A stretch of DNA of 64,000 bases, taken from NCBI GenBank assembly GCA_019096195.1, contig JAGTXK010000108.1:124001-188000 (forward strand), read 5' to 3'. Position numbers and translations under genes: made by a program. This DNA comes from Boletus sp. NGJ. Taxonomy: Eukaryota; Basidiomycota; Agaricomycetes; Boletales; Boletaceae. This document shows positions 3,153 through 60,669 of this stretch, one piece after another. Position 1 is the stretch's first letter. Each line of letters opens with the position of its first letter. The notes beneath the pieces are model-generated. The model was not told the origin of the DNA. It worked only from the letters and a program-made list of their open reading frames with translations, and did no database searches.

Positions 3153-5110
3153 ATGTCGTCGACGAATACCGGTGCGTAGCAGGTCCCGAGGAGCCATTGC
3201 TGAACAATGCTGACTATTCAGTAAGACCAAACACTATTAGTACTTGACACCGGTCGCTCTCGCCATCTAAACTCAGTCGCTTTCCACCCCGACGGAAAAC
3301 ATATTTTGGGCGCGGATGACGGTATTCGACGATGGCGACTTGCAGATGGTCAACAGGTCGGAGAGCAAACGGGAATGAACTCGGAAGTATTGTCCATTTC
3401 TGTGTCGAACGATGACAAATGGATAGTATGTGGGACTTCAAAGGGGGCAAGCGTGTGGGACAGAGAGATGGAGGAAAAAGTCATCAACGTGGAGGACGAA
3501 AACGTGGTCTATGCGGTCGATGTTTCCCCTGATTCGACCAGGTTTGCCGCCGCGACTGGAACACCTAACCACGACGCGAGCATCTGGAGCATTACGAGTG
3601 GGAAGCGACTCGTTGGCCCATTCAAACATGACAATTGGGTTAGCGCAGTCCGATTCTCTCCGAATGGCAAATGCATCGCTACTGCCACCTTCTATTCCGA
3701 AATCCGCATTTTCGACACTCACACCGGTGACAACCGCGTCGCCATCAAGATTGACCTACCTGGACGGGTTCTGGGCTCTCTGCTTGCATGGTCAAGTGAT
3801 GGTCAGCAGATTTTTGCAACATCTGAGGACGGGAAGATCAAGTGTTTCAATGTTTCCACTGGGTCTCTGCTTGCTGAATCACAATATCTCTCTGACAACA
3901 ACGACCTCCTCCACTCTATTGCTCTAGCCGCCAACGGCAACTTCCTTGCTACCTTTGCAGGGCGTTCCACTTTGTTCCTGGACACATCGACGCTGACTCG
4001 CATTGGCTCTGTTGTCGAGGATGGCGAAGGGATACATACAATTTCCATCTCTGCGGACAGTAGCTATCTCGCAACTGGGCGAGATGACGGGAAAATCATA
4101 ATTCGTGATCTCAGCAAGATTCTCCCGGACTCGTACGGTCCATTCCATGTATGTATCTGTAGCTTTATAGTCTCAGTACGTCAAATGATCCCCATCCCAT
4201 CTTGATAAACTGCATAGGCATCTGCTGATGTGGAGGTACGACAAGACGAACACACTCCGAGATCGAGCGGCCAACCACTGCTCGACCCCACCTTGGTAGG
4301 ATTTTATCATTCTGCCACCAAACGTGGTGCACTGACTCCATCGTGTACGCACAACAGGAAGACCCCGGGAAACACAGCGGAGACAACAATGATCTCCTCG
4401 AGGTATCTAAGCGTTTGTTTACTCGTTGAATCGAGTTCTCACGATAGCATAGCTCGAGGCGCGGTCGAGCACACCCGCTGAATTCGACTTTGACGAGGTG
4501 GGTGATCACTTCATTCTCCTCTTGCTTCCATGTTGATGCTGCTGCAGCCACTGTCCCTGGCGTCGTCTGCCCCGGAAGATGAGAAACCGCAATCGTCAGA
4601 TACCCCACCAGTGACCTCTATTCCAGAGGCACGTGTACAGGAAGATCTCGACACTGTCGTGCCACCCCGCAGCCGTTCGATATTCAAAAGGTGGCTACAG
4701 AGAAAGGGTAACAAGGGGCCCACTTCACCTAAGCTTGCCGGTCCTTCCCACTCTCCAGCAAGAGTCAATACCACAAACAAGGAACCTTCGTGGATGGCTG
4801 CAGGTCAACTTACGCCAGTGAGCACTGTTCCTTGAAGGACGATCGGGTGTGTAGTGTGCTAACATACTTCCAGCGAGTGGCCGCAAGATCGGTGGGAAGA
4901 CGAAAGGTTTGTTGTGCCTTGAGTCTGCATGCAGGGACTCATCACACCCGCAGGATAAACCACCTGCGAAAGCTTCCGAACAAGGGCGCGTCGCGCAGTG
5001 GACAAGGTTCTGCGGGCGTAGACCAAGCCGGCCCAGTGCGTTTTTTTTTTCTACTGACGACAGAACTCGTCACAATAGCTCACGTCCCGTTAGCCGCAAC
5101 AAGAGAATAA
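3153..5110 (+). CDS. WD40-A: seven-bladed WD40 repeat protein, array member
   Basis: Exon 1 (3153-3171) encodes MSSTNT. Exon 2 (3226-4148) encodes seven WD repeats, from L-N-S-V-A-F-H-P-D-G to the seventh ending I-I-I-R-D-L-S-K-I-L-P-D-S-Y-G-P-F-H, enough for a closed beta-propeller. Further exons at 4218-4295, 4358-4402, 4453-4497, 4548-4817, 4874-4906 and 4954-5035 give an acidic linker (S-T-P-A-E-F-D-F-D-E), a Ser/Pro-rich tail and the basic patch F-K-R-W-L-Q-R-K. Exon 8 is 14 nt shorter than in WD40-B, shifting the frame, so A probably ends at 5110; the remaining homologous sequence, including the last-exon block, runs to 5304. Propellers of this kind usually act as protein-binding platforms; partner and role are unknown. 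Confidence 0.75.
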
Positions 5111-5870
5111 TTCCTCTCAACCCTCGGCTGGGAGGGTCCATCTAACGGTATGCATTACATTCCCTTAACATGCATTGTTAGACTTATAGTCAATCAGCAT
5201 CAGCAAGGATCCGGCGATGCTACCCTTTCGCTCAGGTTTCCCGCGTGGATGTTTTGTATTCGTTCGAGTGTACAAGACGGGACACATTGATCCAGGTAAT
5301 ATAATGCAATAAATGTAGATACTACTTTAAATCGCGATCTCCCCCCCGTCCATGATTGACCTCGCGCTATACGGTAACGGAGGCCGATTTGGAGCCTGTA
5401 GCCGCATCAAATGCCCATCATGTGGTGAATCCAAAAGGTGACATAGCCTAGGAGGATGCTCTGCATCCGCATCTGGTTCGTGTTCGTCCTTTACCAGGGA
5501 CCCGTAGGGAGTCGCGCGAAGGAGTCAAGTTCGCAGATTGGTCAAGGCCGTTCGACGTTATTTCGAGACCATGCACACCAGAGTTCCAACACAAATATCT
5601 AGTGAGATTCAACACATACTGCCAGAGAGAGCGGGGGAAAACGAAACCGGCGAACAGGCACTCGGATGGGGATGGTGAGGTACATCTTCAACGGGTTCGC
5701 ATTCCTCGAAATGTTGCTTTACTTGCATCATGCTGAGAATCGTAATGGGAAGCGGTCGTGAGGCCAATGCCTTGATTCGATGTCCATGGGTATATTCCTG
5801 GACATGGGTAAAAGATGCGATGGCCCGGGGGATGGTGCGTCGTTAATTCGTAAGTGCAATCAGAGAGTAT
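5111..5870. repeat. Spacer module downstream of WD40-A (copy of 8640-9235)
   Basis: The 5111-5304 part is the residual last-exon block of the WD40 unit. From about 5345 a module begins (CCGTCCATGATTGA) that is paralogous to about 8708-9235 after WD40-B, sharing a GGAGGATGCTCTGC block, a CACAAATATCTAGTGAGATT block and a GATGCGATGGCCC block. It carries no convincing reading frame in either copy and is treated as part of the duplicated unit. Confidence 0.6.
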
Positions 5871-6379: not shown

Positions 6380-8613
6380 ATGTCATCGACGAATGCCGGT
6401 GCGTAGCGGCTGCAAGGAGTCATTGAGCAATACTGACTATTCAGAAGTCCGAACGATAGCACTTAACGACGGTGACTCTGAATGGGTGTACGCAGTCGCG
6501 TTCCAACCTGATGGAGAATATCTATTGGGCGGCGGGAGCGAGGAGGTAATTCGACGATGGCGACTTGCAGATGGTCAAGAGGTCGGAAAGCAAACTGGAA
6601 TGAGGGCGACCGCTATTTCTGTGTCGAGGGATCACAGGTGGATAGTGTGTGGGACTTTCGACGGGGTAAAGGTGTGGGACAGAGAGATGCAAGAAAAGGT
6701 CATCGACGAGGAGGGCGCAAGCAGGGTGTGGGCAGTCGATGTCTCCCCAGATTCGACAAGGTTCGCTACTGGGACTAGTCGCAAGGACGCGAGCATTTGG
6801 AGCATTACGAGTGGGAAGCGACTCGTCGGCCCGCTCACACATGACAATTGTGTCAATGGAATTCGATTCTCCCCGACTGGTGAGCACGTCGCCACCGCCT
6901 GCTGGAGCAATTCCATCCGCATTTTCAACAGTCACACCGGTGTCAACCTCGTCACGATCAGCACCGACATACCTGGTTGGGGCCCGGCCACTCCAATTGC
7001 ATGGTCGAGTGATGCTCAGCAGATTTTCTCTGCATGCCGTGACAACAAAATCAGGGCGTTTGACGCCTCCACTGGGTCCCTGCTTGCTCAATCACACAGT
7101 CTCTGTGACGGCAGCAACGACGTCGCACCTATTGCTGTAGCCGCCAATGGCAAGTTCATTGCTGCCTTTGCAGAACATTCCATCTCATTCCTGGATACAT
7201 CGATACTGGCTCAAATTGGCCCTATCATTGAGGACGGAAAACGGCTAGGGTCAATAGCCATCTCCGCGGATAGTAGCTATCTTGCGACTGGCCGAGCTGA
7301 TGGGAAAATCATGATTCGTGATCTCAGCAAAATCCTTCCGGCTTCGTATGGTCCATTCCATGTAAGTATTAGTGCCTTCGTTATCTTGGCATGGTGGATA
7401 ATAATAACCCCCATTCCATCTCGATAAAATATATAGGCACCTGCTCATGAAGCAGTACGACAAGACGAAAAATCTCCGACATCGGGTGGCCACGACGACC
7501 AACCACCTGATCACACCCTGGTAGGATTTTATTATTCTGCCGCTAAATGTGGCGCACTAACTCTGTCGTGTACGCGGAACAGGAAGATCCCGAGAGACAC
7601 AGCGGAGACAACAACGATCTCCTCGAGGTATCTGTTCGTTTGTTTACTCGTTGAATCAAGTTCTCACGATTGCATAGCTCGAGGCGCGGCCGAGCACACC
7701 CGCTGAATTCGACTTTGACGAGGTGGGTGATCACTTCACTTTCCTCTTGCTTCCATGTTGATGCTGCTGCAGTCACTGTCCCTGGCATCGTCTGCTCCGG
7801 AAGATGAGATACCGCCAGTTGACTCATCTCATCACTCTCATGTGGTATCACAATTGTCGGATACCCCACCCGTGATATCTCCTCCAGAGGCATGTGCACA
7901 GGACAATCCCGACACCGTCGCGTCACCACGCGACCGTTCGATATTCAGAAAGTGGCTACAAAGGAAGAGTAAGAAGGGCCTGGCTTCGCATAAGCCAGAT
8001 CGATGTTCCGGAAAGTCGCACGAGCCTGCCGATTGTCGATCTCCTTCCCACTGTGCAGCGAGAGTGGATGCCACAAACAAGGGGTTTTCGTGGATGGCGC
8101 AGGTCAACGCAGGCCAGTAAGTGCTGTTCCTTGATAGACAATCGGATGTAGTGTGTCTAACATCTCATTCTAGCGGACAGTCGCGACATCGTGGGAGGAG
8201 GTTCGTTGTGTCTCGAGTTTGTATGTAGAGGCTCATCACACGTTACAGGATAAATCACCTGCGAAGACTACTGTTCCCAAAGCTCCGAAGAAGGACGCGT
8301 CGCGCAGTGGACAAGGTTCTGCGGGCGTAGAGCAAGCCGGCCCAGTGCGTTTTCTTTTTCTACTGACGACAGAACTCGTCACGATAGCTCACGTCCCGTT
8401 AGCCGCAACAAGAGAATAATTCCTCTCAACCCTCGGCTGGGAGGGTCCATCTAACGGTATGCATTACATTCCCTTAACATGCATTGTTAGCCTTATGGTC
8501 AATCAGCATCAGCAAGAATCCGGCGATGCTACCCTTTCGCTCAGGTTTCCCGCGTGGATGTTTTGCATTCGCTCGAGTGTACAAGACGGGACACATTGAT
8601 CCAGGTAATATAA
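6380..8613 (+). CDS. WD40-B: seven-bladed WD40 repeat protein, complete 10-exon copy
   Basis: This is the best reference copy. Exon 1 (19 nt) encodes MSSTNA; exon 2 runs from about 6444 to 7361 and encodes seven WD repeats, with blade 1 Y-A-V-A-F-Q-P-D-G-E-Y, blade 3 A-S-I-W-S and blade 7 I-M-I-R-D-L-S-K-I-L. The next exons give E-A-V-R-Q-D-E-K-S-P, the D-N-N-D-L-L-E linker, S-T-P-A-E-F-D-F-D-E, then S-L-S-L-A-S-S-A-P-E-D-E-I-P-P and a Ser/Pro tail with F-R-K-W-L-Q-R-K. Exons 8 to 10 stay in frame through D-K-S-P-A-K-T-T-V-P-K, P-Q-Q-E-N-N-S-S-Q-P-S-A-G and a last exon R-I-R-R-C-Y-P-F-A-Q-V-S-R-V-D-V, stopping at 8611-8613. Frame maintenance over ten exons argues for a functional gene. There is no signal peptide or membrane segment; a cytosolic or nuclear scaffold is inferred. 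Confidence 0.8.
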
Positions 8614-9235
8614 TGCAATACAATTAGGTACTACTTTGAATCGCGATTGTGTGGACACCCACCATGTAGTTCTTTGACTTTGTGTCACCCCGTAACATCA
8701 GCATGAGTCCCCCGTCCATGATTGAGCTCGCGCTTTACGGAAACGGAGGCCGACTCGGAGCCTGTAGCCGCATCGAAGCCCCAACCGGCCTCGTCTTAAA
8801 AGGTAGTTTACCCCAGGAGGATGCTCTGCGTCCGCATCTAGTTCGTGCTCGTCTTTTGCCTGAGGCCCGTGGGAGGCACGCGAAGGAATCAAGTTCGCAT
8901 CGGATTGGTCAAGGTCGTTCGACGTTGCTTACTTCAAGACCATGCGCACCAACACAAATATCTAGTGAGATTCAACACCCACTGCCAGACTCGGAGGATG
9001 TAATGCGCCAGAGCGGCAGAAAACGAAATCGGCGGACAGGCACTCGGATTGGTATGGTGAAGTACATCTTCAAGGGGCTTGGATTTCTTCGAAACGTTGC
9101 TTTACAGAGAGATTGATTTAGTTGTATGCTGAAAATCGCTATGGGACGCGGTCGTGAAGCCAATGCCTTGATTTGATGTCCATGGGTAAAGATGCGATGG
9201 CCCAGGGGATGGTGCGTGATTGATTCGTTCGTGGA
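8614..9235. repeat. Spacer module downstream of WD40-B
   Basis: Paralogous to 5345-5850 after WD40-A. It contains open stretches on the plus strand from about 8682, but the homologous region after A does not keep these frames, so I do not call a gene. Confidence 0.55.
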
Positions 9236-9930
9236 CTTTGTGTATTTATGAGCTTGTCCATGTCATCGAATCTCGGTTAGTAATATCGCGTAGGGAACAA
9301 ACTTGTCAACATTGGATCCGTCCAAGTCAGATGTCTCAAGCAAATAATACGTCTATGACTCGAAACGAGACGTTTCGTTGCCAGAACGCACGAGTATGAC
9401 TGGACAGTGTGTACAGCAGAATTTGGACTTCTGGAGGAATGGGTCGCTCTCCGCATAGACCTCTGCAACTTATATTCTGGTCAGATCGCCAACTCGAGTC
9501 AAGTCGGGAACACGAAGACGCCGAAGCATACATGCTATTGATCACCCCAAGGACGTACCGATAACTATAAACAGAGCGAGCACGGATCAATACTTCATCG
9601 CTCTCCGAAACAAAATGGACGGGTGGATGTTGAGGAGTTCGAGGGTGAAGGTGGTGTGGTCTGTGTTGTTCGACGTCCAGGCAAACGTGGCTTCACTACA
9701 ACTCGTCACGCTCGCGGGGGAGTTGAAGGTCAATGTGGGGACGAGGGCGAACAGGCAAGCGGAGGACGATCCGGCCGATGCGAGACCTAGACGTTGGCGA
9801 ATTCGTGTCATACCTGAGCTCGGCAAGCATGTTGGAACGAAGAGAGCGAAAGGGAGGAGAGCATAGAAGGAAGTATGCGAAGTGGGGACGAGGATCTAGA
9901 AGGTGGGCATTTGAGATGTCCTGACTTGTG
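9236..9930 (-). pseudogene. Remnant of a KRE9/KNH-like secreted protein gene, copy 1
   Basis: The minus strand at about 9600-9830 encodes a hydrophobic stretch (S-A-C-L-F-A-L-V-P) followed by L-T-F-N-S-P-A-S-V-T-S-C, F-A-W-T and T-T-F-T-L-E-L-L-N. This pattern resembles the N-terminal domain of fungal Ser/Thr-rich GPI-anchored or Kre9/Knh1-type secreted proteins. A second, more decayed copy lies at 46000-46720 after WD40-G, so it travelled with the WD40 unit. I cannot assemble a complete gene: no clear start with a signal peptide in frame and no long C-terminal part. Family assignment rests on the short motif only. Confidence 0.35.
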
Positions 9931-10878: not shown

Positions 10879-12911
10879 ATGTCATCGACGACTCGGAATA
10901 CCGGTGCGTAGCAGCTCCGAGGAGTCACTGAGCAGTACTGACTATTCAGAAGACCGAACGATAGCACTTAACGACAATTCTGGATGGGTGTACGCAGTCG
11001 CGTTCCAGCCTGACGGAGAATATCTGTTGGGTGGCGGGAGCGAGGAGGTAATTCGACGGTGGCGACTTGCAGATGGTCAAGAGGTCGGAAAGCAAACTGG
11101 AATGAGGGTGAACGCCATTTCTGTGTCGAGAGATCAGAAGTGGATAGTATGTGGGACTGCGGAGGGGGCAAGCGTGTGGGACGGAGAGATGCGAAAGAAG
11201 GTCATCGATGTGGAGGGCGCAAGCAGGGTGTGGGCAGTCGATGTCTCCCCAGATTTGACCAGGTTCGCCACCGGTACTGGCAATACTGCGAACGTTTGGA
11301 GGATTACGAGTGGGGAGAGACTCGTCAGCCCGCTCACACATGACAATTGTGTCAATGGAATTCGATTCTCCCCGACTGGTGAGCACGTCGCCACCGCCTG
11401 CCGGAGCAATTCCATCCGCATTTTCAACAGCCACACTGGTGATACTCTCGTCACCATCAAAGTTGACCTACCTGGATGGCTCCCGGCCACTCCAATTGCA
11501 TGGTCATGTGATGCTCAGCAGATTTTCTCCGCATGCCGGGACAACAAAATCAGGTCTTTCAATATCTCCACTGGGTCCCTGGTTGCTCAATCGCAAAATC
11601 TCTGTGACGGCAGCAACGACGTCGCACCTATTGCTGTAGCTGCCAATGGCAAGTTCATCGCTACCTTTGCAGAGCATTCTATCTCGTTCCTGGATACATC
11701 GACACTCACTCAGATTGGCCCTGTTATCGAAGATGGCGAACGGCTAGTGTCGATAGCCATCTCAGTGGACTCCAGCCATCTTGCGACTGGACGAAATGAC
11801 GGGAAAATCGTCATTCGTGATCTCAGCAAGATTCTCCCGGACTCGTACGGTCCATTCCATGTATGTATCTGTAGCTTTATAGTCCCAGTCCGTCAAATAA
11901 TCCCCATCCTGTCTTGATAAACTACATAGGCATCTGCTAATGTGGAAGTACGACAAGACGAACAATCTCCGAGATCGGGTGGCCACGACGACCAACCACC
12001 TGATCACACCCTGGTAGGATTTTATTATTCTGCCGTTAAACGTGGCGCACTAACTCTGTCGTGTACGTGCAACAGGAAGATCCCGAGAGACACAGCGGAG
12101 ACAACAACGATCTCCTCGAGGTATCTGTTCGTTTGTTTACTCGTTGAATCGAGTTCTCACGATAGCATAGCTCGAGGCGCGGCCGAGCACACCCGCTGAA
12201 TTCGACTTTGACGAGGTGGGTGATCACTTCATTCTCCTCTTGCTTTCATGTTGATGCTGCTGCAGTCATTGTCCCTGGCGTCGTCTGCCCCAGAAGATGA
12301 GATACCGCCGGTTGGCTCATCTCATGTGATACCGCAACCGTCAGATACCCCACCAGTGCCCTCCATTCCAGAGGCACATGCGCAGGAAGATCTCGACACT
12401 GTAGTGTCACCCCGCAGCCATCCGATATTCAAACAATGGCTACAGAGGAAGAGTAACAAGGGTCCCGCTTCGCATGAGCTCAATCGGCTTCCCGGAAAGT
12501 CACACCGGCCTGGTGATCGTCGATCTCCTTCCTGTTCGACACCGAGAGCCGATGCCACGAATGAAGGACCTTCGTGGATGGCTGCAGGTAAACGCAAGCG
12601 AGTGGGTGCTCTTCTTTGATAAACGGTTGTATGTGATGTGTCTAACATATCTTAGCGAGCGGTCGCAAAAACTGTCAGAAGGCCACACGTATGTTGTCCC
12701 TCGTATTTGTATACAGGGACTCATCGCACATTACAGGATAAATCGTCTGCGAAGACTACAGTTCCCAAGCCTCTGAACAAGGACGGGTCGCGCGGTGGGA
12801 CAAGGTTCTGCGCGCGCGATCGAAGCCAGCCCAGTACGTTTTTTTCTGGTGACGACAGAACTCGTCGCGACAGCTCACGTCCCATTGACATTAGCCGCAA
12901 CAAGGGAGTAA
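10879..12911 (+). CDS. WD40-C: seven-bladed WD40 repeat protein, array member
   Basis: Exon 1 (10879-10903) encodes MSSTTRNT, six nt longer than in the other copies. Exon 2 (10950-11860) encodes seven WD repeats, with blade 2 A-S-V-W-D-G-E-M, blade 4 I-R-I-F-N-S-H-T-G-D and blade 7 I-V-I-R-D-L-S-K-I-L-P-D. Exon 3 starts at 11930 (A-S-A-N-V-E-V-R-Q-D-E-Q); then come E-D-P-E-R-H-S-G-D-N-N-D-L-L-E, L-E-A-R-P-S-T-P-A-E-F-D-F-D-E, and the large tail exon from about 12274 ending W-M-A-A-G-K-R-K-R. The K-R-K-R could be a nuclear localisation signal. The exon corresponding to exon 8 carries a one-base gain relative to WD40-B, so the tail leaves the ancestral frame and probably ends at 12911; an unspliced reading would end at 12946. 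The acceptor before the last-exon block is also changed (TTAT in place of TTAG). Confidence 0.75.
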
Positions 12912-13560
12912 TCCATCTCAACCTCTGGCTGGGATGGTCCATGTAACGGTGCGCGTTCCTTTTCTGTTCACCATCGTTATGCTTATGGTCAATCAGCATC
13001 AACAAGAAACAGGCGTCTCTACCCTTTCGATCTCGTTTCCTACGTGGATATGGTGTTGTCGCTCGCCGATAACACAAGATGGAACCCATTAATCTGGGTA
13101 ATATAATGCTATCCATGCAGATATCGCTAATATGTGGATATCGAGCAAGCAATTCTTTGACTTTGTGTCACTTCAGCACATTAGTAGGAGTCCTGACCAG
13201 CCTGTCCATTGATTGAGCTTGCTCATATTCACTCGATGGCCACTGATAATGTCTATACAAGCGGGTGCCATCCTCATTCTGTGTTAGAGCCAGAGCGACA
13301 CTACGCACGAGAAGAGTACGTGGCATGTCCATTTGCCAACGCTGGCTCAAAGGATGCTCAGTTCGACAACGCATGATGCATGTAGATAGAATACGATATA
13401 GTATGAACGTATCACAATACTCTGCGGGCTCATCGCAATCCAACTCCGACAAGGGGAATTCCGACGTTGATCGTTCAAGGGCGTGTCGATTCCCTCGTCG
13501 TCGGGTTTGAATGCGACCATATTGCAGCGCCAAAAACACGCCCTTGGTCATTCGTTGTGA
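12912..13560. repeat. Spacer module downstream of WD40-C
   Basis: Contains the remaining last-exon block (to about 13106), then a module with TTTGCCAACGCTGGCTCA and a CATGATGCATG stretch. This recurs downstream of D (20500-20720), after I (55780-55930) and after J (60890-61140). Open frames here are not conserved between copies. Confidence 0.55.
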
Positions 13561-18245: not shown

Positions 18246-20431
18246 ATGTTGTCGACGAATACCGGTGCGTAGCAGCTCTGAGGAAGTGACTGAGCAATAC
18301 TCACTATTCAGTAAGACCAAACGATACTATTTGAGACCGGTGGCTTTGGCTATGTATACGCAGTTGCGTTCCACCCCGACGGAAAGCATGTTTTAGGCGG
18401 GGATGACGATGGAATTCGACGATGGCGACTTGCAGACGGACAAGAGGTCAGAAAGCAAATAGGAAATGAGCGTACGCGCCATCTCTGTGTCGAGAGATCA
18501 GAGGTGGATAGTATGTGGCACTACGAATGGGGCAAGCGTGTGGGACGGAGAGCTGCATGAAAAGGTCATCGAGGTTGGGGGCACAAGATACGTGGATGCG
18601 GTGGACGTCTCCCCAGATTCCACCAGGTTTGCCACCGGGTCTCGCGCCCACGAAGCGAACATTTGGAGCGTTACGAGTGGGGAACAGCTTGTCGGTCCGC
18701 TTAAACATGACGGCGATGTTGATGGAATTCGATTCTCCCCGAGTGGCGACCGCATTGCCACTGCCTGCAACACAAGGCTCCGCATTTTCGACAGTCACGG
18801 TGGTGATGAGCTCGTCACCATCAAAATTGGCCTACCTATTAGATTCATTGGGATCACTCCGCTTGTGTGGTCAAGCAATGGGCAGCAGATTTTTGCTGTA
18901 TCCCGCGACAAAAAAATCAGGGTGTTTGACACCTCCACTGGGACCCAACTTGCTGAATCACAAATTGTCGACGGCGACAACGACGTTCGCTCTATCGCCC
19001 TAGCTGCCAATGGCAAGTTCCTTGCTACTTTTATAGACCAATCCATCTCGTTCCTGGACACACTGACGCTGACTCGCATCGGCCCTGTTGTCGAGGACGG
19101 CAGACCGATATCTTCAATCGCCATATCAGACAGTAGCCATCTTGCGACTGGGCGAGTTGACGGGAATATCGTCATTCGTGATCTCAGCAAGATTCTCCCG
19201 GACTCGTGTGATCCATTCCATGTAAGTATTTGTACCTTTACGATCTCGGCATGTCAAACTTGAACAATTCCCATTCCATCTTGATAAACTACACAGACAT
19301 CTGCTAATGTGGAAGTACGACAAGACGAACAATCTCCGAGATCGGGTGGCCACGACGACCAACCACCTGATCACACCCTGGTAGGATTTTATCATTCTAC
19401 CGTTAAACGTGGCGCACTGACTCCATCGTGTACGTGCAACAGGAAAATCCCGGGAGACACAGCGAAGACGACAGCGATCTCCTCGAGGTATCTGTTCGTT
19501 TGTTTACTCGTTGACTCGAGTTCTCACGATAGCATAGCTCGAGGCGCGGCCGAGCACACCCGCTGAATTCGACTTTGACGAGGTGGGTGATCACTTCATT
19601 CTCCTCTTGCTTCCATGTTGATGCTGTTGCAGTCATTGTCCCTGGCGTCGTCTGCCCCAGAAGATGAGATACCGCCAATTGGCTCATCTCATGTGATACC
19701 GCAATCGTCAGATACCCCACCAGTGCCCTCCATTCCAGAGGCACGTGCGCAGGAAGATCTCGACACTGTCGTATCACCTCGCAGCCGTTCGGTATTTAAA
19801 AGGTGGCTACAGAGAAAGAGTAACAAAGGCCCGGCTTCACATAAGCCAGATCGTTCTAGAAAGTCGCGCGAGCCTGCCGATTGTCGATCTCCTCCCCACT
19901 CTCCAGCACGAGTGGATGTTAACCATGAGGGGCCAGTAAAGATGGCTGCATCTCGACCTAAGACAGTGAGTGTTGTTCCTTGATAGATAATCGGATGTAG
20001 TGTGTTAACACTATTTCAGCGATCGGCCGCAAGAGGGGGGAGACGAAAGGTTTGTTGTGCCTCGAGTCTGTGTGCAGGGACTCATCACACTTACAGGCTA
20101 AATCAGCTGCCGAGGCTGCTGTTCCCAAAGATCCGAACGAAGATACTTCCCGTAGCGGACAAGGTTCTGCGGGCGCGAACGAAGCCAGCCCAGTGCGTTT
20201 TTTTTCTGCGATGGTAGGACTCGTCACGACAGCTCACGTCCCGTTAGGCACAACAAATGAACGATTCATCTCAACCATCGGCAGCAGGGGTCCATCTGAC
20301 GGTGCGCGATACTTCCCTTTCATCTTCATTATTAGACTTACAGTGAATTAACATCAGGAAGCATCTGGTTTCGCTACCCTTTCGCTCACGTTTCCAGCGT
20401 GGTTGTTGTGTTTTCGGTCAGGTACACATGA
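18246..20431 (+). CDS. WD40-D: WD40 repeat protein, frame broken in blade 1
   Basis: Exon 1 encodes MLSTNT and exon 2 begins D-Q-T-I-L-F-E-T-G-G-F-G-Y-V-Y-A-V-A-F-H-P-D-G. Blade 1 reads to about 18464, where one extra A in a short run shifts the frame relative to all paralogs. The rest of the propeller then runs open from 18466 to 19263 (S-V-R-A-I-S-V-S-R-D-Q-R-W and six further blades). The tail exons are in frame, including A-K-S-A-A-E-A-A-V-P-K and the last exon T-Y-S-E-L-T-S-G-S-I-W-F-R-Y-P-F-A-H-V, stopping at 20429-20431. Either the extra base is a sequence error, translation begins inside at the Met near 18466 giving six blades, or the gene is newly dead. Its 3' third is almost identical to that of WD40-E. 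Confidence 0.65.
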
Positions 20432-23818: not shown

Positions 23819-24109
23819 TGAGGTGCATAGACCCAGTTGATTCAATACAATATACGTAGATACAATACTGAATTGCGAGGATGGGGACATCGATCACATA
23901 GTTCTTTAACTTCGTGTCATTGGGTCGTAGCGTTAGTACGAGTCTCTGTCCCTGATCGAACTCGCTGGCATTCACCCAATGTGACAAAATACCACTAACT
24001 CTGGACGGCATTCCAATTACTCGGACATCCAGATAACACCTAGTAGGTGTCTGCTCCAGTTCAGAGCTTCCGGAGCATTGACTTCGGAACATTGATTCAT
24101 CAGTAAATA

Positions 24110-24310: not shown

Positions 24311-24339
24311 TAGTAATTTTAAGCTAATCCTAATCCTGA

Positions 24340-38574: not shown

Positions 38575-38782
38575 ATAAAATAGAGTAGGCTGTGTTACAG
38601 CCATGGTGGTGCATCACCTAGAAGGAGAGTTCCAGATGGGGCGATGTTTGCGTGGGTGTCGTGGGGGAATCCCAGGGAAATCCTGGGTAGTCGTAGGAGT
38701 TGAAGAAAAGGTCGACCCAGAGTCCAGGAGGGGGTGAAGGAAGAGAAAAAGATATACCCCCTTCTGTAGCTGTAACACACAA

Positions 38783-42014: not shown

Positions 42015-42879
42015 TGAGACGCATCGACCTGGTTGATTAGATGCGATGTATGTAGATACTACACTATCTAGTACTAAGGCTGCGAACGTCCTAGCCCTGA
42101 GGTGACTATCGGGCAATGGCCCAGTAATACCTGGTCCGGATGAAGTGCGGAGAGTTGCGAAACCAACGGTAAGATGGCCAACGTCACAAGTAGCTCAGAA
42201 CCGAAATCTACGCTCATCGACGGCGAACATGCAAATCTGCTGCGATAACCTCGGGTGAGAAAGCCCTCCATACACTCGGGGAAGAGTTGTAGGAATTAAA
42301 TTAAAAATCGCCCAGAATACGTATACCGGAGTGAGTCTGTATTCGACAGATGTGACCATGACCACACACGCTGTACCGAAGACGATCGCTTGCTAAACAA
42401 CTCTGAAACCACGTGGAGAAGGCCTACGTCGCGTTGACAACCCCATAAATATAAGTTGTGCGAGGAGCGGAGGCTCATATTTTTGGGACAAGAACTGTCG
42501 GCAACCAGGTGTTGAAAGAGAGGCCCGGACCTTTCTAAAGCATTAAGCCGGTGGGACAACCGATGAGTATCTGGAAGGGAGGCTAGGTGAAACCGTTAGT
42601 TCCCCCAGGACAGCGGCAAATGCAAGATGAAGTAGGAGACAACGGAAATTGGGTGTAGGAAGCGTCTTGAACTCTTCAATGGACATCTTGATGAGGTGCA
42701 GGAGGTTTTAACCACTTGCAGAATGTAGAATGAATTTTAAATGCCATATTTTCTGCCTTTGCGCAGAATAACGTGAGTTGAACAAATGCGGATTGTAAAC
42801 TTGTGTGATGAATAGAGTCTTGTAGCGTCGACGGCTTGCCTCATAAAGTCCAAACTTGCCATTGTCATCCGAGGGGATT
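42015..42879. other. Spacer after WD40-F, mostly unique
   Basis: About 865 bp. From about 42060 to 42730 I find no match elsewhere in the window and no convincing gene; weak minus-strand open stretches at 42074-42271 and 42296-42559 are not recognisable. Confidence 0.35.
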
Positions 42880-43392: not shown

Positions 43393-45601
43393 ATGTCGAC
43401 GAATACCGGTGCGTAGCAGCTCCGAGGAGTGACTGAGCAATACTGACTATTCAGTAAGCCCAAACGATACTACTTGACACTGGCCGCCCTGGATGGGTAG
43501 ACGCAGTCGCTTTCCAGCCTGACGGAAAGCATCTTTTGAGCGGGAATCGTGACGGGATTCAACGGTGGCGACTAGCAGACGGTCAAGAAGTTGGAAAGCA
43601 AACGGGAATGGATTTGAACGCCATTTCGGTATCGAGTGATCACAAGTGGATCGTGTGTGGGACTTACCGGCATGGGGCAAGCGTGTGGGACGAAAAGATG
43701 CATAAAAAGGTCATCAGTGTGGAGGGCGCCAACAAGGCATTTGCGGTCGATGTCTCCCCAGATTCGACGAGGTTTGCTACCGGGACTGACAACGATGCGA
43801 GCATTTGGAGCCTCACGACCGGGGAGCGGCTCCTCGGTCCCCTCCAACACGACGGAGAAGTCAATGGAATTCGATTCTCCCCAACTGGCGAGCATCTCGC
43901 CACTGCCTGCCACGCGAATTTGATCTTGATTTTCGACAGCTACACTGGTGACAAGCTCGCCACCATCAACGCCGACATACCTAAATGGGTCGCGGCCACT
44001 CCACTTGCATGGTCAACCGATGCTCAGCAGATTTTCTCCGCATGCTACGACAACAAAATCAGGTCTTTCAGCATCTCTACTGGGTCGCAGCTTGCCGAAT
44101 CACATATTCTCCATGACGGCAACAACAATGTTCCCTCTGCTGCCCTAGCTACCAACAGCAAATTCATTGCTACCTTTGCAGACCATTCCATCTCATTACT
44201 GGACCCATCGACACTGACTCCGATTGACCCTATTATCGAGGACAGCGAACGGATATCGTCAATCGCCATCTCACTGGACAGTAGCCGTCTCGCGACTGGG
44301 CGAGCCGACGGGAAAATCGTCATTCGTGATATCAGCAAGATTCTCCTGGACTCGTATGGTCCATTCCATGTTGTAAGTATCTCTGTCATCATAATCTCAG
44401 CATGTAAAACAATCACCATTCCATCTTGATAAATTACATAGGTACCTGCTGATGAGGAAGTACGACAAGACAAACGATCTCCAACATCGGGTGGCCACGA
44501 CGGCCAACCACCTGATCCCACCATGGTAGAATTTTATCATTCTGCTGCCAGACGTGGTGCACTGACGCCATCGTGTACGCGCAACAGGAAGATCCCGAGA
44601 GACACAGCGGAGACAACAATGATCTCCTCGAGGTATCTGTTCATTTGTTTACTCGTTGAATCGAGTTCTCACGATAGCATAGCTCGAGGCGCGGCCGAGC
44701 ACGCCCGCTGAATTCGACTTTGACGAAGTGGGTGTTCACTTCATTCTCCTCTCGCTTTCATGTTGATGCTGCTGCAGTCATTATCCCTGGCATCGTCTGC
44801 CCGGGAGGACGAGATACCGCCAGTTGGCTCATTTCATGTGATACCACAACCGTCGAATATCCCACCAGTGCCCTCCATTCCAGAGGCACGTGCGCAGGAA
44901 GATCTCGACACTGTCGTATCACCCCGCAGCCCTTCAATATTCAAAAGGTGGCTACAGAGAATGAGTAACAAGGACTCTGCCTCACATAAGCCCGATCAAC
45001 CTTCCGCAAAGTCGCGCCAGCCCGCTGATTGTCGATCTCCTTCCCCATCGAGAGCCGATGCCACGAATGAAGGACCTTCGTGGATGGCTGCAGGTAAACG
45101 CAAGCGAGTGAGTGCTCTTCTTTGATAGACGGTTGTATGTGATGTGTCTAACATATCTTAGCGAGCGGTCGCAAAAACCGTCAGAAGGCCACAGGTTCAT
45201 TGTTCTTCGGATTTGGTATGCAGGGACTCATCGCACATTACAGGATAAATCGTCTGCCAAGGCTGCTGTTCCAAAGCCTCCGAACAAGGACGCGTCGCGC
45301 AGTGGACAAGGTTCTACGGGCACGAACGAAGCCGGCTCAGTGCGTTTTTTTTTTTGGCAATGGTAGAACTTGTCACGACAGCTCACGTCCCGTCAGCCGC
45401 AACAAGAGAATAATTCATCTCAACCCGAGGCCGGGAGGGTCCACCTAACGGTACGCGTTACCTTGCATTCATCTACATTGTTAGACTTACGGTCAATCAG
45501 CATCAGCAAGGATCAGGCGATGCTACCCTTTCGGTCAGGTTTCCCGCATGGATGTTTTGTATTCGCTCCAGCGTGCAAGATGGGACACATTAATCCTGTG
45601 A
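43393..45601 (+). CDS. WD40-G: seven-bladed WD40 repeat protein
   Basis: Exon 1 encodes MSTNT; exon 2 opens A-Q-T-I-L-L-D-T-G-R-P-G-W-V-D-A-V-A-F-Q-P-D-G. Blades close at I-Q-R-W-R, A-S-V-W-D, A-S-I-W-S, I-L-I-F-D, I-R-S-F-S, I-S-L-L-D and I-V-I-R-D-I, seven in all. Tail exons supply the E-F-D-F-D-E linker, F-K-R-W-L-Q-R-M and W-M-A-A-G-K-R-K-R. D-K-S-S-A-K-A-A-V-P-K-P-P-N-K-D, P-Q-Q-E-N-N-S-S-Q-P-E-A-G and the last exon R-I-R-R-C-Y-P-F-G-Q-V-S-R-M-D-V follow, stopping at 45601. All exons stay in frame. Its propeller is distinct from the E/F pair, while its tail is closest to C and F. Confidence 0.8.
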
Positions 45602-47942: not shown

Positions 47943-50165
47943 ATGTCGACGAATACCGGTGCGTAGCAGCTCCGACGAATGATTGAGTAATACTGACCAT
48001 TCAGTAAGACCAAACGATACTAGTCGACACCAGTCGCTCTGATACGGTGTGGGCAGTCGCGTTCCACCCCGACGGAAGGCATCTTTTATGCGGGACTAGC
48101 GATGGGATTCGACGATTGCGACTTGCAGATGGTCAACAGGTCGGAAAGCAAACGGGAATGACGGTGAACGCAATCTCTGTCTCGAGGAATCACCAATGGA
48201 TAGCCTGTGGGACTCATCGGAAGGGGGCAAGTGTGTGGGACGGAGAGATACAGGAAAAGGTCATCGAGGTAGAGGGCACAGCTGCGGTGGACACTGTCGA
48301 CGTTTCCCCAGATTCGACGACGTTCGCCACTGGGACTCGCGCTGGGGAAGCGAGTATCTGGAGTATTACGAGTGGGGAGCGGCTTCTGGGCCCGCTGAAA
48401 CATGACGATGATGTCGATGGAATCCGATTCTCCCCCAGTGGCGACCGTATTGCCACTGCCTGCGACACGAGGATCCACATCTTCGACAGTTACACCGGTG
48501 ATGAACTTGTCACCATCAAGATTAACCTACATACATGGGCCGCGATGACTCCGCTTGCGTGGTCAAGCAACGGTCAGCAGATTTTTGCTGTATCCCGCGA
48601 AAACAAAATCAAGGCGTTTCATGCCTCCAGCGGGACACAACTGGCTGAATCGCAAATTCTCCACCATGTCAACAACGATGCCTCCTCTATTGCCCTAGCT
48701 GCGAATGGCAAATTCATTGCAGCCATTGCAGCCGATTCCATCCTGTTCCTGGATACATCAACACTCACTCAGATTGGTCCTGTTCTCGAGGATGGTAATT
48801 GGATACAGTCAATCGGCATCTCACTGGACAGTAGCCGTCTTGCGGCTGGACGGTACAATGGGAAAATCATCATTCGTGATCTCGGTAAGATTCTCCCAGA
48901 CCTGTATGGACCATTCAATGTAAGTACTTTGGCCTTTATACTGCTTGCTTGTCAAATAAGCCCTGTTCCATCCCCCATGCTGACGAAATACATAGATATC
49001 TACTCGCGACGAAATTCAACAAGATGAAAAACCTCCGACATCAGGTGACCACGCAGTAAGATTTCGTGATTCGATCACCAAAATGGTCGCGCTGACTCCG
49101 TCATTGTGTACGTACAACAGGAAGTGCCTGGGGAATCCAGTCGAGTTGAGTCCAAGGGACATGGCGAAGGTGACAATGGCGATCTCCTCGAGGTATCAGT
49201 TTACTTATTCTCTCCTCGAAACAAGTTCTCATAATAGCATAGGTGGAGGTGTCGCCGCGCATGCCTGCTCAATTCGACTACGACGAGGTGGGTGATCACT
49301 TTAGTCTCCTCCTAATTCCGTGTTGATATTGCTATAGTCACTGTCCCCGGAGTCGTCTGAATCTGCTGATACCCAGGAGGATGAGATATTACCAGTTGGC
49401 TCTCACCCCATATCACAACCATCGGGTTTCCCACCAGTGACTTCTCCTCCAGAGGCACATGGAGAGCAAAATGTCGACACTGTCGAGTCACCTCGGAGTC
49501 GCTCCATATTTAGAAAGTGGCTACAAAGGAAGGGGAATAGGGGCCCCGTTTCACCGAAGCCTGGTCGCAGAAAGTCGCGCGAGCCTGCCAATCCCCGATC
49601 ACCTTCCCACCCACCAGCAAGAGTCGATGCTACTCAAGGACCTTCGTGGATGGCGGCAGGTAAACGTAAGCGAGTGAGTGCTCTTCCTTGATAGACGATT
49701 GGATGTGGTGTGTTTTAACATATCTTAGCGAGCGGTTGCAAAAACCGTCAGAAGGCCACAGGTTCGTTATTCTTCGGATTTGGTATGCAGGGACTCATCA
49801 CACGTTACAGGATAAATCATCTGCCAAGGCTGCTGTTTCAAAGCATCCGAGCAAGGACGCCTCGCGCAGTGGCAAAGGTGCTGGGAGCGCAAACGAAGCC
49901 GGCCCAGTGCGTTTTCCTTTGGCGATGGTAGAACCCGTCACGACAAGCCTCTCATGTTCCGTTAGGTGCAAGAAGTGACCGATTCATCTCAACCCTCTCC
50001 TGGGAGGGTCCATCTAACGGTACGCGTTACCCTCCTTTCACCTACATTTAGACTCACGGTCAATTAGCATCAGCAAGGGTCAGGCGATGCTACCCTTTCG
50101 GTCAGGTTTCCCGCATGGATTTTTTGTATTCGCTCAAGTGCACAAGATGGGACACATTGATCTAG
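47943..50165 (+). CDS. WD40-H: seven-bladed WD40 repeat protein
   Basis: Exon 1 encodes MSTNT. Exon 2 runs from about 48009 to 48919, with seven blades including V-W-A-V-A-F-H-P-D-G-R-H, V-D-T-V-D-V-S-P-D-S-T-T-F, V-D-G-I-R-F-S-P-S-G-D and I-I-I-R-D-L-G-K-I-L-P-D-L-Y-G-P-F-N. Tail exons give E-D-E-I-L-P-V-G-S-H-P, F-R-K-W-L-Q-R-K-G-N-R-G-P-V and W-M-A-A-G-K-R-K-R, then D-K-S-S-A-K-A-A-V-S-K-H-P-S-K-D. The last exon stops at 50163-50165 (R-V-R-R-C-Y-P-F-G-Q-V-S-R-M-D-F). From about 49437 to 50040 it is nearly identical to WD40-J. Sequence between exons 3 and 4 (about 49050) is shorter than in J. Confidence 0.78.
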
Positions 50166-54606: not shown

Positions 54607-55690
54607 ATGTCGGTGCGTCCTAGCACTCCGGGAAGTGAGTGCTTGTGCGCTTACAATTCGGTAAGACCCTACAATAGTACTTGAAACTGGTAGCTAAATG
54701 GTCATAGACGTGGAGGGCGAAAACCTGTTGGAATCCTGCCGTCGACGTCTCCCCAGATTGTATCAGTTTGCCACCGGGACCCGGCGCACCGAGGAAACGA
54801 GCATCTAGAGCGAAACGTCGGACTGGGGCGACACGTCTTCACCATCAAGATTGACGTACCAAAGATGGGCCCTGGCGCCACTTCCTTTCATGGTCAAGTG
54901 CCAACGCTCAACAAACTTTTGCCATATCCTTCGACAACAAACTGAGGTCTTTCAAGATCTCCGAGTCCACCGGCCCGGGGTCCTCGCTTGTCGAATCAGA
55001 AATTCTCTGTAATGACAACGACAGCGTCCCCTCTATCGCCTTAGCCGCCAACGACAAATTCATTCCTGGCTATGGAGACCATTCCATCTCAAAGTTCCTG
55101 CCAGTGGAGGACAGTAAACAAATATGGTCAATCGCCATCTCACGGGACAATAGCCATCTTGCTACTGGACGATGTGATGGGAAAATCGTCATTCGCGATT
55201 CTCGGCAAGATCTTCACACCCTTGCACTGGTCCATTCAATGTAAGCATTTGTACCTTTAAACTCCTTGCATATCAAATTAGAATAAATCCCGACCCATCT
55301 CTCACGTTGTCAATTTCATAGGTATCTATTCACGAAGAAGTTTAACAAGATAAACGACTTTTGACACCGGGCGACCTCGATGGCAATGTATCTTGCTCCA
55401 CCCGAGTAGAATTTCACCATTCCGTCACCAAAACAGTTGCGCTGACTCCGTCATTGTGTGGAACTCGTCACGACAGCTCACATTTCATCAGGCGCAACAA
55501 TAAAATGATCCATTTCAACCCTCGGGAGGGAGGGTCCACGTAATGGTGCGCGTCATTTCCTTTAACTTGCATTCTTACACTCAATACCACATCAGCGAAG
55601 GTCACTGGGGGATGCTATCATTGCGCTCAGGGTACCCCCATGGATGCTTTGTTGTAGCTCAGGTATAGACAATGGGACACATGGATCCAG
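54607..55690 (+). pseudogene. WD40-I: decayed WD40 array member
   Basis: The first-exon region (AAAATGTCGGTGCGTCC) and the exon 2 start (AAGACC...TACTTGAAACTGG) are recognisable. Blade 1 and most of blade 2 are missing: the sequence jumps to V-I-D-V-E-G-E-N. Later pieces correspond to blades 3, 5, 6 and 7, in shifting frames. Near 55460 the sequence passes directly from the T-P-S-L-C segment near exon 4 to the AACTCGTCACGACAGCTCAC sequence of the exon 8-9 intron, so exons 4 to 8 are deleted. The leader is also missing. A host gene duplicate that died. Confidence 0.8.
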
Positions 55691-56178
55691 GTGATTCGAT
55701 GCGATCCACGTAGATACCATGCTGGATCGCGACTATCTGGATCGTTTCTATTACCTAGTTGCATAAGTCGGTCAATGATCCTCGCCAGGATATTCACTCG
55801 TCTGCCATTGATCAAGTCGATACACACCCTCGTAACATCCAATACTACACACGAGAAGTCTACATGTGAGTCTATTTGCCAACGCTGGCTCATTGAAAGG
55901 ATGCTCAATGTAGACATCGCATGATGCATGTGTGCAGACATAACACATAGCATGTTTATAGCATGAACGTGTATTCACGAACATGTGTACAATGGATGTA
56001 GGACTATCCGAACCGTTATTTAGTACGTAGTTGGAACATGTTCACGGTCGCCTTGTCCTTCTCGCAATCCGACCATACGTTCACGCGCTGTCGCCAGCCT
56101 CTATCTTCTCGTGCTGTGGCACGCTTCTCTTCGAAACGCTTCCAGGGATCTCGCTATGCTGTCTAGAACGTCAATAAT
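55691..56178. repeat. Spacer module downstream of WD40-I
   Basis: Shares the TTTGCCAACGCTGGCTCA / CATGATGCATG module (55870-55930) and the CGGTCGCCTTGTCCTT ... CGCTGTCGCCA module (56043-56170) with the spacer after WD40-J. Confidence 0.55.
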
Positions 56179-58532: not shown

Positions 58533-60669
58533 ATGTCGACGAATATCGGTGCGTAGCAGCTCCGACGAATGATTGAGCAATACTGACCATTCAGTAAGAC
58601 CAGACGATACTACTCGACACCACTGGCAGTCGCTCTGGTTCGGTGTGGGCAGTCGCGTTCCACCCCGACGGAAGGCATCTTTTGGTCGGAAAAGATGATG
58701 GAATTGGACGATGGCGACTTGCAGATGGTCAAGAAGTCGGAAAGCGAATGGAAATGCCGGTGTACGCCATTTCCGTGTCGAGAAATCACAAGTGGATAGT
58801 TTGTGGGACTTATGGCGCAGGGGCAAGCGTGTGGGACGGAGAGTTGCATCAAAAGGTCTTCGACGTGGAGGGCAAAAACACCGTGGACACTGTCGACGTT
58901 TCCCCAGATTCGACGACGTTCGCCACTGGGACTCGCGCTGACGAAGCGAGTATCTGGAGTATTACGAGTGGGGAGCGGCTTCTGGGCCCGCTGAAACATG
59001 ACGACGATGTCGATGGAATCCGATTCTCCCCCAGTGGCGACCGTATTGCCACTGCCTGCGAGACGAGGATCCACATCTTCGACAGTCGCGGTGGTGAAAA
59101 ACTCGTCACCATCAAGATTGAGCTACCTTCATTGGTCGGGATCACTCCGCTTGCATGGTCAGGCAATGGTCAGCAAATTTTTGCTGCATCTAGTGACAAC
59201 AAAATCAAGTCATTTGATGCCTCCACTGGGACCCAGCGTGCCGAATCACAAATACTCCAGGACACCGTCTCCTCTATCGCCCTAGCTGTAAATGGCAAGT
59301 TCATTGTTACCTTTGCAGACAGTTCCATCCTGTTCCTGGATACATCAACACTGATACAGATTGGCCCTGTTGTCGAGGATGACAAACGGATACGGTCAGT
59401 CGCCATCTCACCAGACAGTAGCCGTTTGGCGACTGGACGATATGATGGGAAAAGCATCATTCGTGATCTTGGCAAGATTCTCCCAGACCTGTATGGACCA
59501 TTCAACGTAAGTGTTTGTGCCTTTATACTCCTTGCATGTCAAATAAACCCTGTTCCATTTCCCATGCTGACAAAATATATAGATATCTACTCATGACAAA
59601 GTTCAACAAGATGAAAAACCTCCGACATCAGGTGACCACGACAAGGTATCTAGCTCTACCCCAGTAAGATTTCGTGATTCGGTCACCAAAATGGTTGCGC
59701 TGACTCCGTCATTATGTACGTACAACAGGAAGTTCCCGGGGAATCCAGTCGAGTTGAGTCCAAGGGACACGGCGAAGGTGACAATGGTGATCTCCTCGAG
59801 GTATCTGTTCGTTTGTTTCACCCTTGAACTGAGTTCTCACAATAGCATAGGTCGAGGTGTCACCGAGCATGCCTGCTCAATTCGACTACGACGAGGTGGG
59901 TGATCACTTTGTTCTCCTCTGGCTTCCGTACTGACACTGCTGGAGTCGTTGTCCCTGGCATGCTCTGCTGATGGCCGGGAGGATGAGATGCCACCAGTTG
60001 GCTCATCTCAACCCATATCCGAAGCATTGGATTTCCCACCAGTGACTTCCCCTCCGGAGGCACATGCAGAGGAGGATATCGACACTGTCGAGTCACCTCG
60101 GAGTCGCTCCATGTTTAGAAAGTGGCTACAGAGGAAGGGGAACAGGGGCCCCGTTTCACCGAAGCCTGGTCGCAGAAAGTCGCGCGAGCCTGCCAATCCC
60201 CGATCACCTTCCCACCCACCAGCAAGAGTCGATGCTACTGAAGGACCTTCGTGGATGGCGGCAGGTAAACGTAAGCGAGTGAGTGCTCTTCCTCGATAGA
60301 CGGTTGGATGTGGTGTGTTTAACATATCTTAGCGAGCGGTTGCAAAAACCGTCAGAAGGCCACAGGTTCGTTATTCTTCGGATTTGGTATGCAGGGACTC
60401 ATCACACGTTACAGGATAAATCATCTGCCAAGGCTGCTGTTTCAAAGCATCCGAGCAAGGACGCCTCGCGCAGTGGCAAAGGTGCTGGGAGCGCAAACGA
60501 AGCCGGCCCAGTGCGTTTTCTTTTGGCGATGGTAGAACCCGTCACGACAAGCCTCTCATGTTCCGTTAGGTGCAAGAAGTGACCGATTCATCTCAACCCT
60601 CTCCTGGGAGGGTCCATATAACGGTGCGCGTTGCCCTCCTTTCACCTACGTTGTTAGACTTATGGTTGA
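58533..60669 (+). CDS. WD40-J: seven-bladed WD40 repeat protein, shortened tail
   Basis: Exon 1 encodes MSTNI; exon 2 runs from about 58600 to 59508 with seven blades: V-W-A-V-A-F-H-P-D-G-R-H, V-Y-A-I-S-V-S-R-N-H-K-W, V-D-T-V-D-V-S-P-D-S, V-D-G-I-R-F-S-P-S-G-D, L-A-W-S-G-N-G, V-S-S-I-A-L-A and I-R-S-V-A-I-S-P-D-S. It ends D-L-Y-G-P-F-N. The tail gives S-L-S-L-A-C-S-A-D, F-R-K-W-L-Q-R-K-G-N-R-G-P-V, W-M-A-A-G-K-R-K-R, D-K-S-S-A-K-A-A-V-S-K-H-P and V-Q-E-V-T-D-S-S-Q-P-S-P-G. In the last exon a TGA follows T-Y-G at once (60667-60669), where other copies have Gln, so the conserved end is lost. It is most similar to WD40-H. Confidence 0.78.

What the first reader, a model, noticed from the sequence alone, without database searches (positions are those of the whole stretch)
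3153..60669. Ten-member same-strand array of stand-alone WD40 propeller genes with a conserved ten-exon plan
Nine copies keep a seven-blade propeller exon and one is a remnant. B, F, G and H stay in frame across all ten exons, including the low-complexity tail, which argues for selection. Short N-termini without NACHT, HET or other NLR domains set them apart from known fungal WD40 NLR genes. A rapidly duplicating receptor-like or scaffold family is plausible, for example in recognition or mating-type-like functions, but function is inference.
Basis: partly seen in the sequence, partly recalled or inferred. Interest (0 to 1): 0.75.

Follow-up and report, generated by a model that had tools for sequence, protein, structure and literature searches.

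The report
Fungal propeller family with hypervariable face
This stretch of a fungal genome holds ten tandem copies of a gene for a small propeller-shaped protein, part of a family of roughly 120 copies whose predicted binding surface changes fast under selection, which suggests a recognition repertoire that does without the usual receptor parts.

Summary
The array is real: ten same-strand copies of one unit with a ten-exon plan, a seven-blade WD40 exon 2 and a low-complexity tail. Corrections: by my models E, F, G, H and J are open over all ten exons; A, B, C are broken in the tail, D in the propeller, I is a remnant. The array is one piece of a family with 130 places on 37 contigs (about 120 distinct); NACHT-type places number at most 18, none on this contig. 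Overall dN/dS is about 0.36 (propeller) and 0.49 (tail). At 21 positions that a published rule predicts as the top-face binding surface, amino-acid change exceeds silent change: dN/dS 2.65 over all pairs of 46 propellers, pN/pS 1.46 (1.25-1.69) in 23 disjoint pairs, against 0.43 and 0.52 elsewhere. The 46 faces all differ. A C-terminal P-x-W-[MLIV]-x(0-1)-C motif is kept in 31 of 31 intact distinct copies. Window copies trade gene segments. Best reading: intracellular, perhaps membrane-tethered recognition propellers, diversified like the sensor of fungal NLRs but without NOD or effector domains. What they recognise is not shown.

The parts
3153..5304 (+). copy A; exon 2 3226-4148 open; exon 8 4954-5035 is 82 nt, frame shifted, tail broken (end of the model is approximate)
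6380..8627 (+). copy B; exon 2 6448-7361 open; one base missing at the end of exon 6 (7773-8116), tail broken unless another donor is used (end approximate)
10879..13106 (+). copy C; exon 2 10953-11860 open; exon 8 12737-12833 is 97 nt, tail broken (end approximate)
18246..20431 (+). copy D; exon 2 18316-19221 carries one extra base and stops; exons 6-10 nearly identical to E (end approximate)
21599..23840 (+). copy E, open over ten exons; exon 2 21680-22560; mosaic: exons 2-5 like F, exons 6-10 like D
39771..42036 (+). copy F, open over ten exons; exon 2 39846-40744
43393..45593 (+). copy G, open over ten exons, 569 aa: 43393-43408, 43459-44372, 44442-44525, 44588-44632, 44683-44727, 44778-45107, 45162-45194, 45244-45339, 45397-45450, 45501-45593
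47943..50160 (+). copy H, open over ten exons; exon 2 48009-48919
54836..55741 (+). copy I, remnant: pieces of the propeller exon and of later exons
   Evidence: tblastn 54882-55306, blastn 54836-55741
58533..60766 (+). copy J, open over ten exons; exon 2 58599-59506
43494..44306 (+). span of the 21 top-face positions in copy G (G numbering from Gln at 43461-43463: 12,14,30 | 51,53,69 | 92,94,110 | 133,135,151 | 178,180,196 | 223,225,241 | 264,266,282)
   Evidence: rule from PMC3419727 (passages); tests
45501..45593 (+). exon 10 of G with the C-terminal motif (PAWMFC)

Best explanation
A large, locally duplicating and recombining family of intracellular recognition proteins. Each protein is one seven-blade WD40 propeller (exons 1-2) followed by a Ser/Pro-rich tail (exons 3-10). 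[quoted passage not shown] binding is inferred). The start shows no hydrophobic signal-like stretch (by inspection) and no NOD or HET domain was found, so the protein must act through a partner (inferred). The conserved C-terminal P-x-W-[MLIV]-x(0-1)-C motif may tether it to a membrane, for example by S-acylation (inferred). New specificities arise by tandem duplication, point change on the top face, and exchange of gene segments between copies. The likeliest use is recognition of non-self or of variable effectors after cell fusion or contact with other organisms.
For: Site pattern: at 21 positions set by the published R1-2 / R1 / D-1 rule (PMC3419727, passages), dN/dS is 2.65 (20 of the 21 well covered) against 0.43 at 278 other sites over all pairs of 46 propellers; 23 disjoint pairs give pN/pS 1.46 (bootstrap 1.25-1.69) against 0.52 (0.49-0.55); 15 disjoint pairs of intact copies give 1.70 (1.48-2.00); 0 of 20,000 random site sets reach the observed mean. 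When the set is slid by 1 to 12 positions the mean amino-acid difference falls from 0.83 to 0.13-0.56 (all sites 0.38), and pN/pS, slid by 1 to 6, to 0.33-1.05. Synonymous change at these sites is only a little higher (pS 0.456 against 0.399), so local mutation does not explain it. Face residues are enriched in Tyr (11-fold), Trp (3-fold) and Arg (2.4-fold); all 46 faces differ, on average at 17.4 of 21 positions, gaps counted. Positions flanking a conserved V and D are also those under positive selection in the Podospora HNWD sensors (PMC1805685, passages). Purifying selection overall; tail motif in 31 of 31; local duplication: nearest relative on the same contig 19 of 46 against 2.8 in shuffles, neighbours on the same strand 54 of 60; segment exchange in the window.
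Against: No ligand, expression or strain data. The tail is often broken while the propeller stays open (15 of 54 copies broken or incomplete only in the tail against 4 broken in the propeller), so the tail may be dispensable or many copies are recent pseudogenes. I had seen the nine-copy alignment before I fixed the 21 positions, although the rule is published; sets slid by -2 and -1 still give ratios of 1.05 and 1.03, so neighbouring loop residues vary too. Blade 5 fits worst: its most variable positions are 175-177, outside the set, and position 180 takes only 4 residue types. Window copies alone give a weaker excess, 1.27 against 0.55 in four disjoint pairs. The C-terminal motif was read off the same copies in which it was counted. 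No structure could be predicted. HET genes are not significantly close to the family (6 of 53, expected 2.8, p 0.063).
Confidence: 0.55

Rival explanations
1. Substrate adaptors of a ubiquitin ligase: the diversified face picks rapidly changing targets for degradation, as in the large F-box and MATH-BTB families of other organisms (recalled comparison).
For: Top-face selection, no signalling domain found, tandem expansion fit an adaptor as well as a receptor.
Against: No match to a DDB1-binding DWD box pattern in 46 propellers; 3 of 46 have W[DE]x[RK] (pattern recalled). No F-box or BTB was noticed in the translations, but Pfam was run on two propellers only and not on the tail.
Confidence: 0.17
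2. Sensor halves split off from NLRs, or decoys for them, that work with a separate NLR or HET protein.
For: Same kind of positions selected as in HNWD sensors; the genome has 18 NPHP3_N and 53 HET places.
Against: No NACHT, NPHP3_N, NB-ARC or HET place on the contig; 0 of 18 NPHP3_N places within about 10 kb of a family place; blades are not alike (mean identity 0.24 in G), unlike the repeats of HNWD; the 54 copies modelled have their own start exon, and all but those cut off or broken their own tail.
Confidence: 0.13
3. G-beta or RACK1-like signalling scaffolds used in host-specific signalling.
For: A Suillus-pine study reports G-beta WD40 transcripts among host-specific genes (PMC5065116, passages).
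Against: G-beta profile 33.9 and 43.8 bits against a cut-off of 150; about 120 copies and diversifying selection are unlike a conserved scaffold; the link to the Suillus genes is untested.
Confidence: 0.08
4. A neutral or nearly neutral amplification of no function, kept by unequal exchange.
For: 19 of 54 copies examined are broken or incomplete; 20 of 130 places have stops in the propeller.
Against: 35 of 54 are open over all exons by a lenient rule; mean dN/dS 0.36 and 0.49 with no pair above 1; the excess at the top face is not expected without selection.
Confidence: 0.04

Closest known systems
Podospora anserina HNWD family (HET-D, HET-E, HET-R; HET-NACHT-WD40 NLRs)
   Same: WD40 propeller; excess amino-acid change at positions flanking a conserved V and a conserved D on the top face (PMC1805685, codons 7, 9, 25, 27; passages); exchange between paralogues (PMC2873952, passages)
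   Different: No HET and no NACHT; one propeller of seven unlike blades instead of highly conserved repeats; exchange of gene segments rather than of repeat units; about 120 copies instead of a family of 10; a tail with a C-terminal motif
Fungal NLRs in general (NACHT or NB-ARC with WD40, ANK or TPR)
   Same: Large, plastic repertoire with a diversified repeat domain (PMC4986451 and PMC10197012, passages)
   Different: No nucleotide-binding domain found; in this genome the family outnumbers NACHT-type places at least six to one
Uncharacterised 'WD40 repeat-like' proteins of Boletales
   Same: From memory only: propeller plus a Ser/Pro-rich, basic tail ending in a Trp/Cys stretch
   Different: Recalled, not tested: no fungal protein collection was available here
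Ordinary seven-blade WD40 proteins (WDR5, G-beta, RACK1)
   Same: Fold, by sequence match
   Different: Their faces are, from general knowledge, conserved between orthologues; here the face is the most variable part

Membership tests
WD40 beta-propeller | WD40 repeat profile above the curated cut-off | tested here: met
   PF00400 83.8 and 79.4 bits in G and H, cut-off 27
WD40 beta-propeller | seven blades closing a ring | tested here: inconclusive
   seven repeats counted by eye in the alignment and sequence matches to solved WD40 propellers such as WDR5; no structure could be predicted
Fungal WD40 NLR (HNWD) | NACHT or NB-ARC domain in the same gene | tested here: not met
   none on contig C71; coding before the propeller exon is 16-25 nt in the window copies
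Fungal WD40 NLR (HNWD) | N-terminal HET or other effector domain | tested here: not met
   no HET place on C71; exon 1 encodes only about six residues; other effector domains were not searched one by one
Fungal WD40 NLR (HNWD) | high internal conservation of the repeats | tested here: not met
   blade-to-blade identity in G 0.15-0.34, mean 0.24 (G only)
Fungal WD40 NLR (HNWD) | positive selection at top-face positions of the repeat | tested here: met
   (counting methods, no likelihood site model)
CRL4 substrate receptor (DCAF) | DWD box | tested here: not met
   0 of 46 propellers match the recalled pattern
G-protein beta subunit | match to the G-beta profile above cut-off | tested here: not met
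   33.9 and 43.8 bits in G and H, cut-off 150
Fungal NLR or allorecognition receptor | triggers incompatibility or cell death | not testable with these tools
   needs an experiment

The most novel reading that the evidence does not exclude
In this fungus most of the recognition diversity sits in about 120 sensor-only, membrane-tethered propellers instead of in NLRs: a receptor repertoire in which the variable sensor and the signalling machine are separate gene products, joined through the conserved tail, and in which copies trade whole exon blocks to couple new faces to old tails.
Probability: 0.3. Interest if true: 0.85.

Novelty: new variant of a known kind. Interest (0 to 1): 0.66.

Why it matters
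Fungal innate recognition is studied mostly through NLRs. A family several times larger than the NLR set of the same genome, with the same kind of top-face positions under diversifying selection but with no NOD domain, would be an overlooked class of recognition protein. It gives a direct test: delete or swap faces and look for altered incompatibility, defence or host response.

Tried and rejected
Introns slower than exons: the first per-exon table and the pairwise table suggested that introns diverge less than synonymous sites. The non-homologous baseline (0.37-0.42) shows that short introns align too well by chance for this comparison, so I dropped it.

HET neighbours: 6 of 53 HET places lie within about 10 kb of a family place, expected 2.8, p 0.063, with two of the six (C22, C75) probably one duplicated segment; not claimed. 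NPHP3_N neighbours: 0 of 18.

DWD box: rejected. NCBIfam: no match for G. Strong segment exchange as in D/E was looked for among the 465 pairs of 31 intact copies: only 2 pairs show a segment under 6% diverged with a propeller half over 18%, so near-identical transferred blocks are a minority there. Distances of different gene segments agree only at 0.29-0.54, but this also holds between the two propeller halves (0.46) and partly reflects noise in short segments.

Literature: eight searches aimed at this family or its setting and two for the WD40 rule and HNWD genes, in the open-licence library only, each showing at most the best 25 papers (15 of 31, 25 of 71 and 15 of 301). None of the listings showed a description of this family. 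Six papers were seen as passages only; all others as search listings.

Limits of the counts: the 45 copies outside the window are the best matches to copy G, not a random sample. 'Intact' was counted leniently: junctions were allowed to move by 3 to 12 nt in steps of 3, and 5 of the 35 (L014, L021, L059, L060, L078) keep one or two junctions that are not GT/AG; L014 lacks exon 3. L030 and L073, among the 15 with a broken or incomplete tail, run off the stretch held. The list typed into marked 19 places with stops; one search shows 20 (C137:136470 was not marked).
Full report
What is there. The window is part of contig C71 (124001-188000) of an unnamed 32.8 Mb genome in 141 contigs. tblastn of the propeller exon and self-blastn find ten copies of one unit on the + strand. 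Gene models were projected from copy G on a MAFFT alignment of 54 copies: nine from the window and 45 others from the same genome. The plan is: exon 1 of 16-25 nt in the window copies (MSSTNT or similar), an intron of about 50 nt, exon 2 of about 900 nt (the propeller), then eight short exons of a tail of about 250 residues. Median intron lengths are 48-68 nt in 31 intact copies. In the alignment most exon length differences are multiples of three.

State of the window copies. E, F, G, H and J are open from start to stop (574, 586, 569, 571, 576 residues). A and C are shifted in exon 8, B at the end of exon 6, D in the propeller; I is a remnant. In the wider sample 35 of 54 copies are open by a lenient rule (31 distinct after removing L028, L036, L037, L038, which duplicate others), 4 are broken in the propeller and 15 only in the tail or incomplete. 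The sample holds the best matches to G and is not random.

Size of the family. The exon-2 protein of G finds 130 places at E below 1e-5, only 129 of 360 first-look candidates having been scored, so this is a lower bound; they lie on 37 contigs. 103 places are at least 800 nt long and 20 carry stops. By identical scores nine places are duplicates of others (only some were checked letter by letter) and two rows belong to one gene, which leaves about 120. 86 of 130 lie in groups of two or more within 15 kb and 54 of 60 neighbour pairs share a strand. Of 144 tail matches that I took from the listed part of the 203, 111 sit just downstream of a listed propeller and 33 do not; 112 of 130 propeller places have such a tail match. 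The window holds nine of the places on C71 plus the remnant.

Not an NLR. In the same genome NACHT (PF05729) has 8 places; NPHP3_N (PF24883) has 18, which include those 8 and of which one is below the curated cut-off; NB-ARC has none, HET 53; none is on C71. These are six-frame searches without regard to introns. A review gives a mean of 83 NLRs for basidiomycete genomes (PMC10197012, passage). The propellers of this family are diverged WD40s: PF00400 matches above cut-off, 83.8 bits in G, yet none of the 150 PF00400 places listed for the genome lies on C71. Blades within G share 15-34% identity, unlike the highly conserved repeats of HNWD genes (PMC2873952, passages).

Selection. Over 465 pairs of 31 distinct intact copies, mean propeller dN is 0.263 and dS 0.757 (mean ratio 0.36), mean tail dN 0.356 and dS 0.738 (0.49); no pair exceeds 1. 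Per-site entropy over 46 open propellers put residues on either side of the conserved V of strand a, and residues of the b-c turn, near the top of the list in every blade. These are the R1-2, R1 and D-1 positions that Wu and co-workers identify as top-face hotspots from structures (PMC3419727, passages), and they resemble the four codons under positive selection in Podospora HNWD repeats (PMC1805685, passages). With 21 such positions fixed by the rule, dN/dS over all pairs of the 46 is 2.65 (20 of the 21 positions well covered) against 0.43 at 278 other sites; 18 of the 30 sites with the highest pN are in the set. The raw ratio pN/pS exceeds 1 in all seven blades (1.15 in blade 5, 1.36-1.81 in the others). 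In 23 disjoint pairs pN/pS is 1.46 (1.25-1.69) against 0.52 (0.49-0.55); in 15 disjoint pairs of intact copies 1.70 (1.48-2.00); in four disjoint window pairs 1.27 against 0.55. Sets slid by 1 to 6 give 0.33-1.05, the highest at -2 and -1. Synonymous change is only a little higher inside the set. The residues used are rich in Tyr, Trp, Arg and Asn and poor in Ile, Val, Leu, as expected for an exposed binding surface. Caveats: I had seen the nine-copy alignment before fixing the list; blade 5 fits worst, its most variable positions (175-177) lying outside the set; these are counting methods without a likelihood site model, and recombination is not modelled.

Tail. Most of the tail is Ser/Pro-rich (14% and 11%) and diverged, acidic in exons 3-5 and basic in exons 7-9. 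Its last exon keeps P-x-W-[MLIV]-x(0-1)-C in 31 of 31 intact distinct copies, with 1-3 Cys in the last 40 residues and 0.39 on average between residue 320 and there. The motif was read off these same copies. A short hydrophobic stretch with Cys at the C-terminus is a candidate acylation site; this is inference.

Recombination. E matches F at 95-100% in exons 2-5 with the introns between them, and D at 92-100% in exons 6-10 with theirs, while D and E differ by 25% in exon 2; the switch lies in exon 6. H and J share exons 6-9 (91-100%) but not exon 10 (73%); A and B share exons 8-10 (93-100%) but are 77% alike in exon 2. Over the genome sample, pairwise distances of different gene segments correlate only at 0.29-0.54, though near-identical transferred blocks are rare there (2 of 465 pairs). 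The eight window propellers in a FastTree tree do not form one clade, yet the nearest relative is on the same contig for 19 of 46 copies against 2.8 in shuffled labels: birth by local duplication, then dispersal and exchange.

Mechanism. Shown by sequence: one propeller plus tail, purifying selection on the fold, excess amino-acid change on the predicted top face, a conserved C-terminal motif, local duplication and, in the window, segment exchange. Inferred: the face binds variable protein or peptide ligands; the protein is intracellular and membrane-tethered; a partner reads the tail or the bound state. Non-self or effector recognition is the likeliest use because similar positions diversify in known fungal allorecognition sensors, but a ubiquitin-adaptor role would leave the same footprint.

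Known or new. Eight searches of an open-licence library aimed at this family showed no description of it in their listings. From memory, Boletales genomes hold annotated 'WD40 repeat-like' proteins with similar tails; no fungal collection was available to test this, so the family may well not be unique to this genome, and the organism is not identified.

Noticed in passing
window 24000-39400: Low-GC block (about 40-48%) between copies E and F with two Tc1/mariner-like elements (26918-28536 and 29940-31545, 75% alike, DDE_3 matches, a weak HTH_Tnp_Tc3_2 match in one) and a Helitron_like_N match at 32268-32711.
   Followed up: partly
window 50647-50955, - strand: Cytochrome P450 fragment (PF00067, 54.7 bits) between copies H and I.
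   Followed up: partly
window 14629-15540 and 62228-63329: A purine/cytosine permease-like gene (24.0 bits, cut-off 23.5) lies between C and D, and an adaptin-N gene just after the array; ordinary genes that interrupt or bound it.
   Followed up: partly
window 9332-10019 and 46029-46794; 55843-56148 and 61049-61366: Spacer stretches shared between places in the array (67-74% alike), so duplication units were longer than the gene.
   Followed up: no
G000 contigs C22, C71, C81: Matches on C22 mirror each other about one point (coordinate sums 486532 for two WD40 pairs and one HET pair), and pairs on C71 (63254+/86834-) and C81 (50611-/69766+) score alike in inverted orientation: large inverted repeats, or assembly artefacts that inflate copy number.
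   Followed up: partly
G000, 33 tail matches without a listed propeller, e.g. C97:80392, C56:19051, C77:151113: Tail-like stretches with no listed propeller match beside them: remnants, or members with more diverged propellers.
   Followed up: no
G000: Only 18 NPHP3_N places (8 of them also NACHT) and no NB-ARC place, low against the basidiomycete mean of 83 NLRs per genome quoted in PMC10197012.
   Followed up: partly
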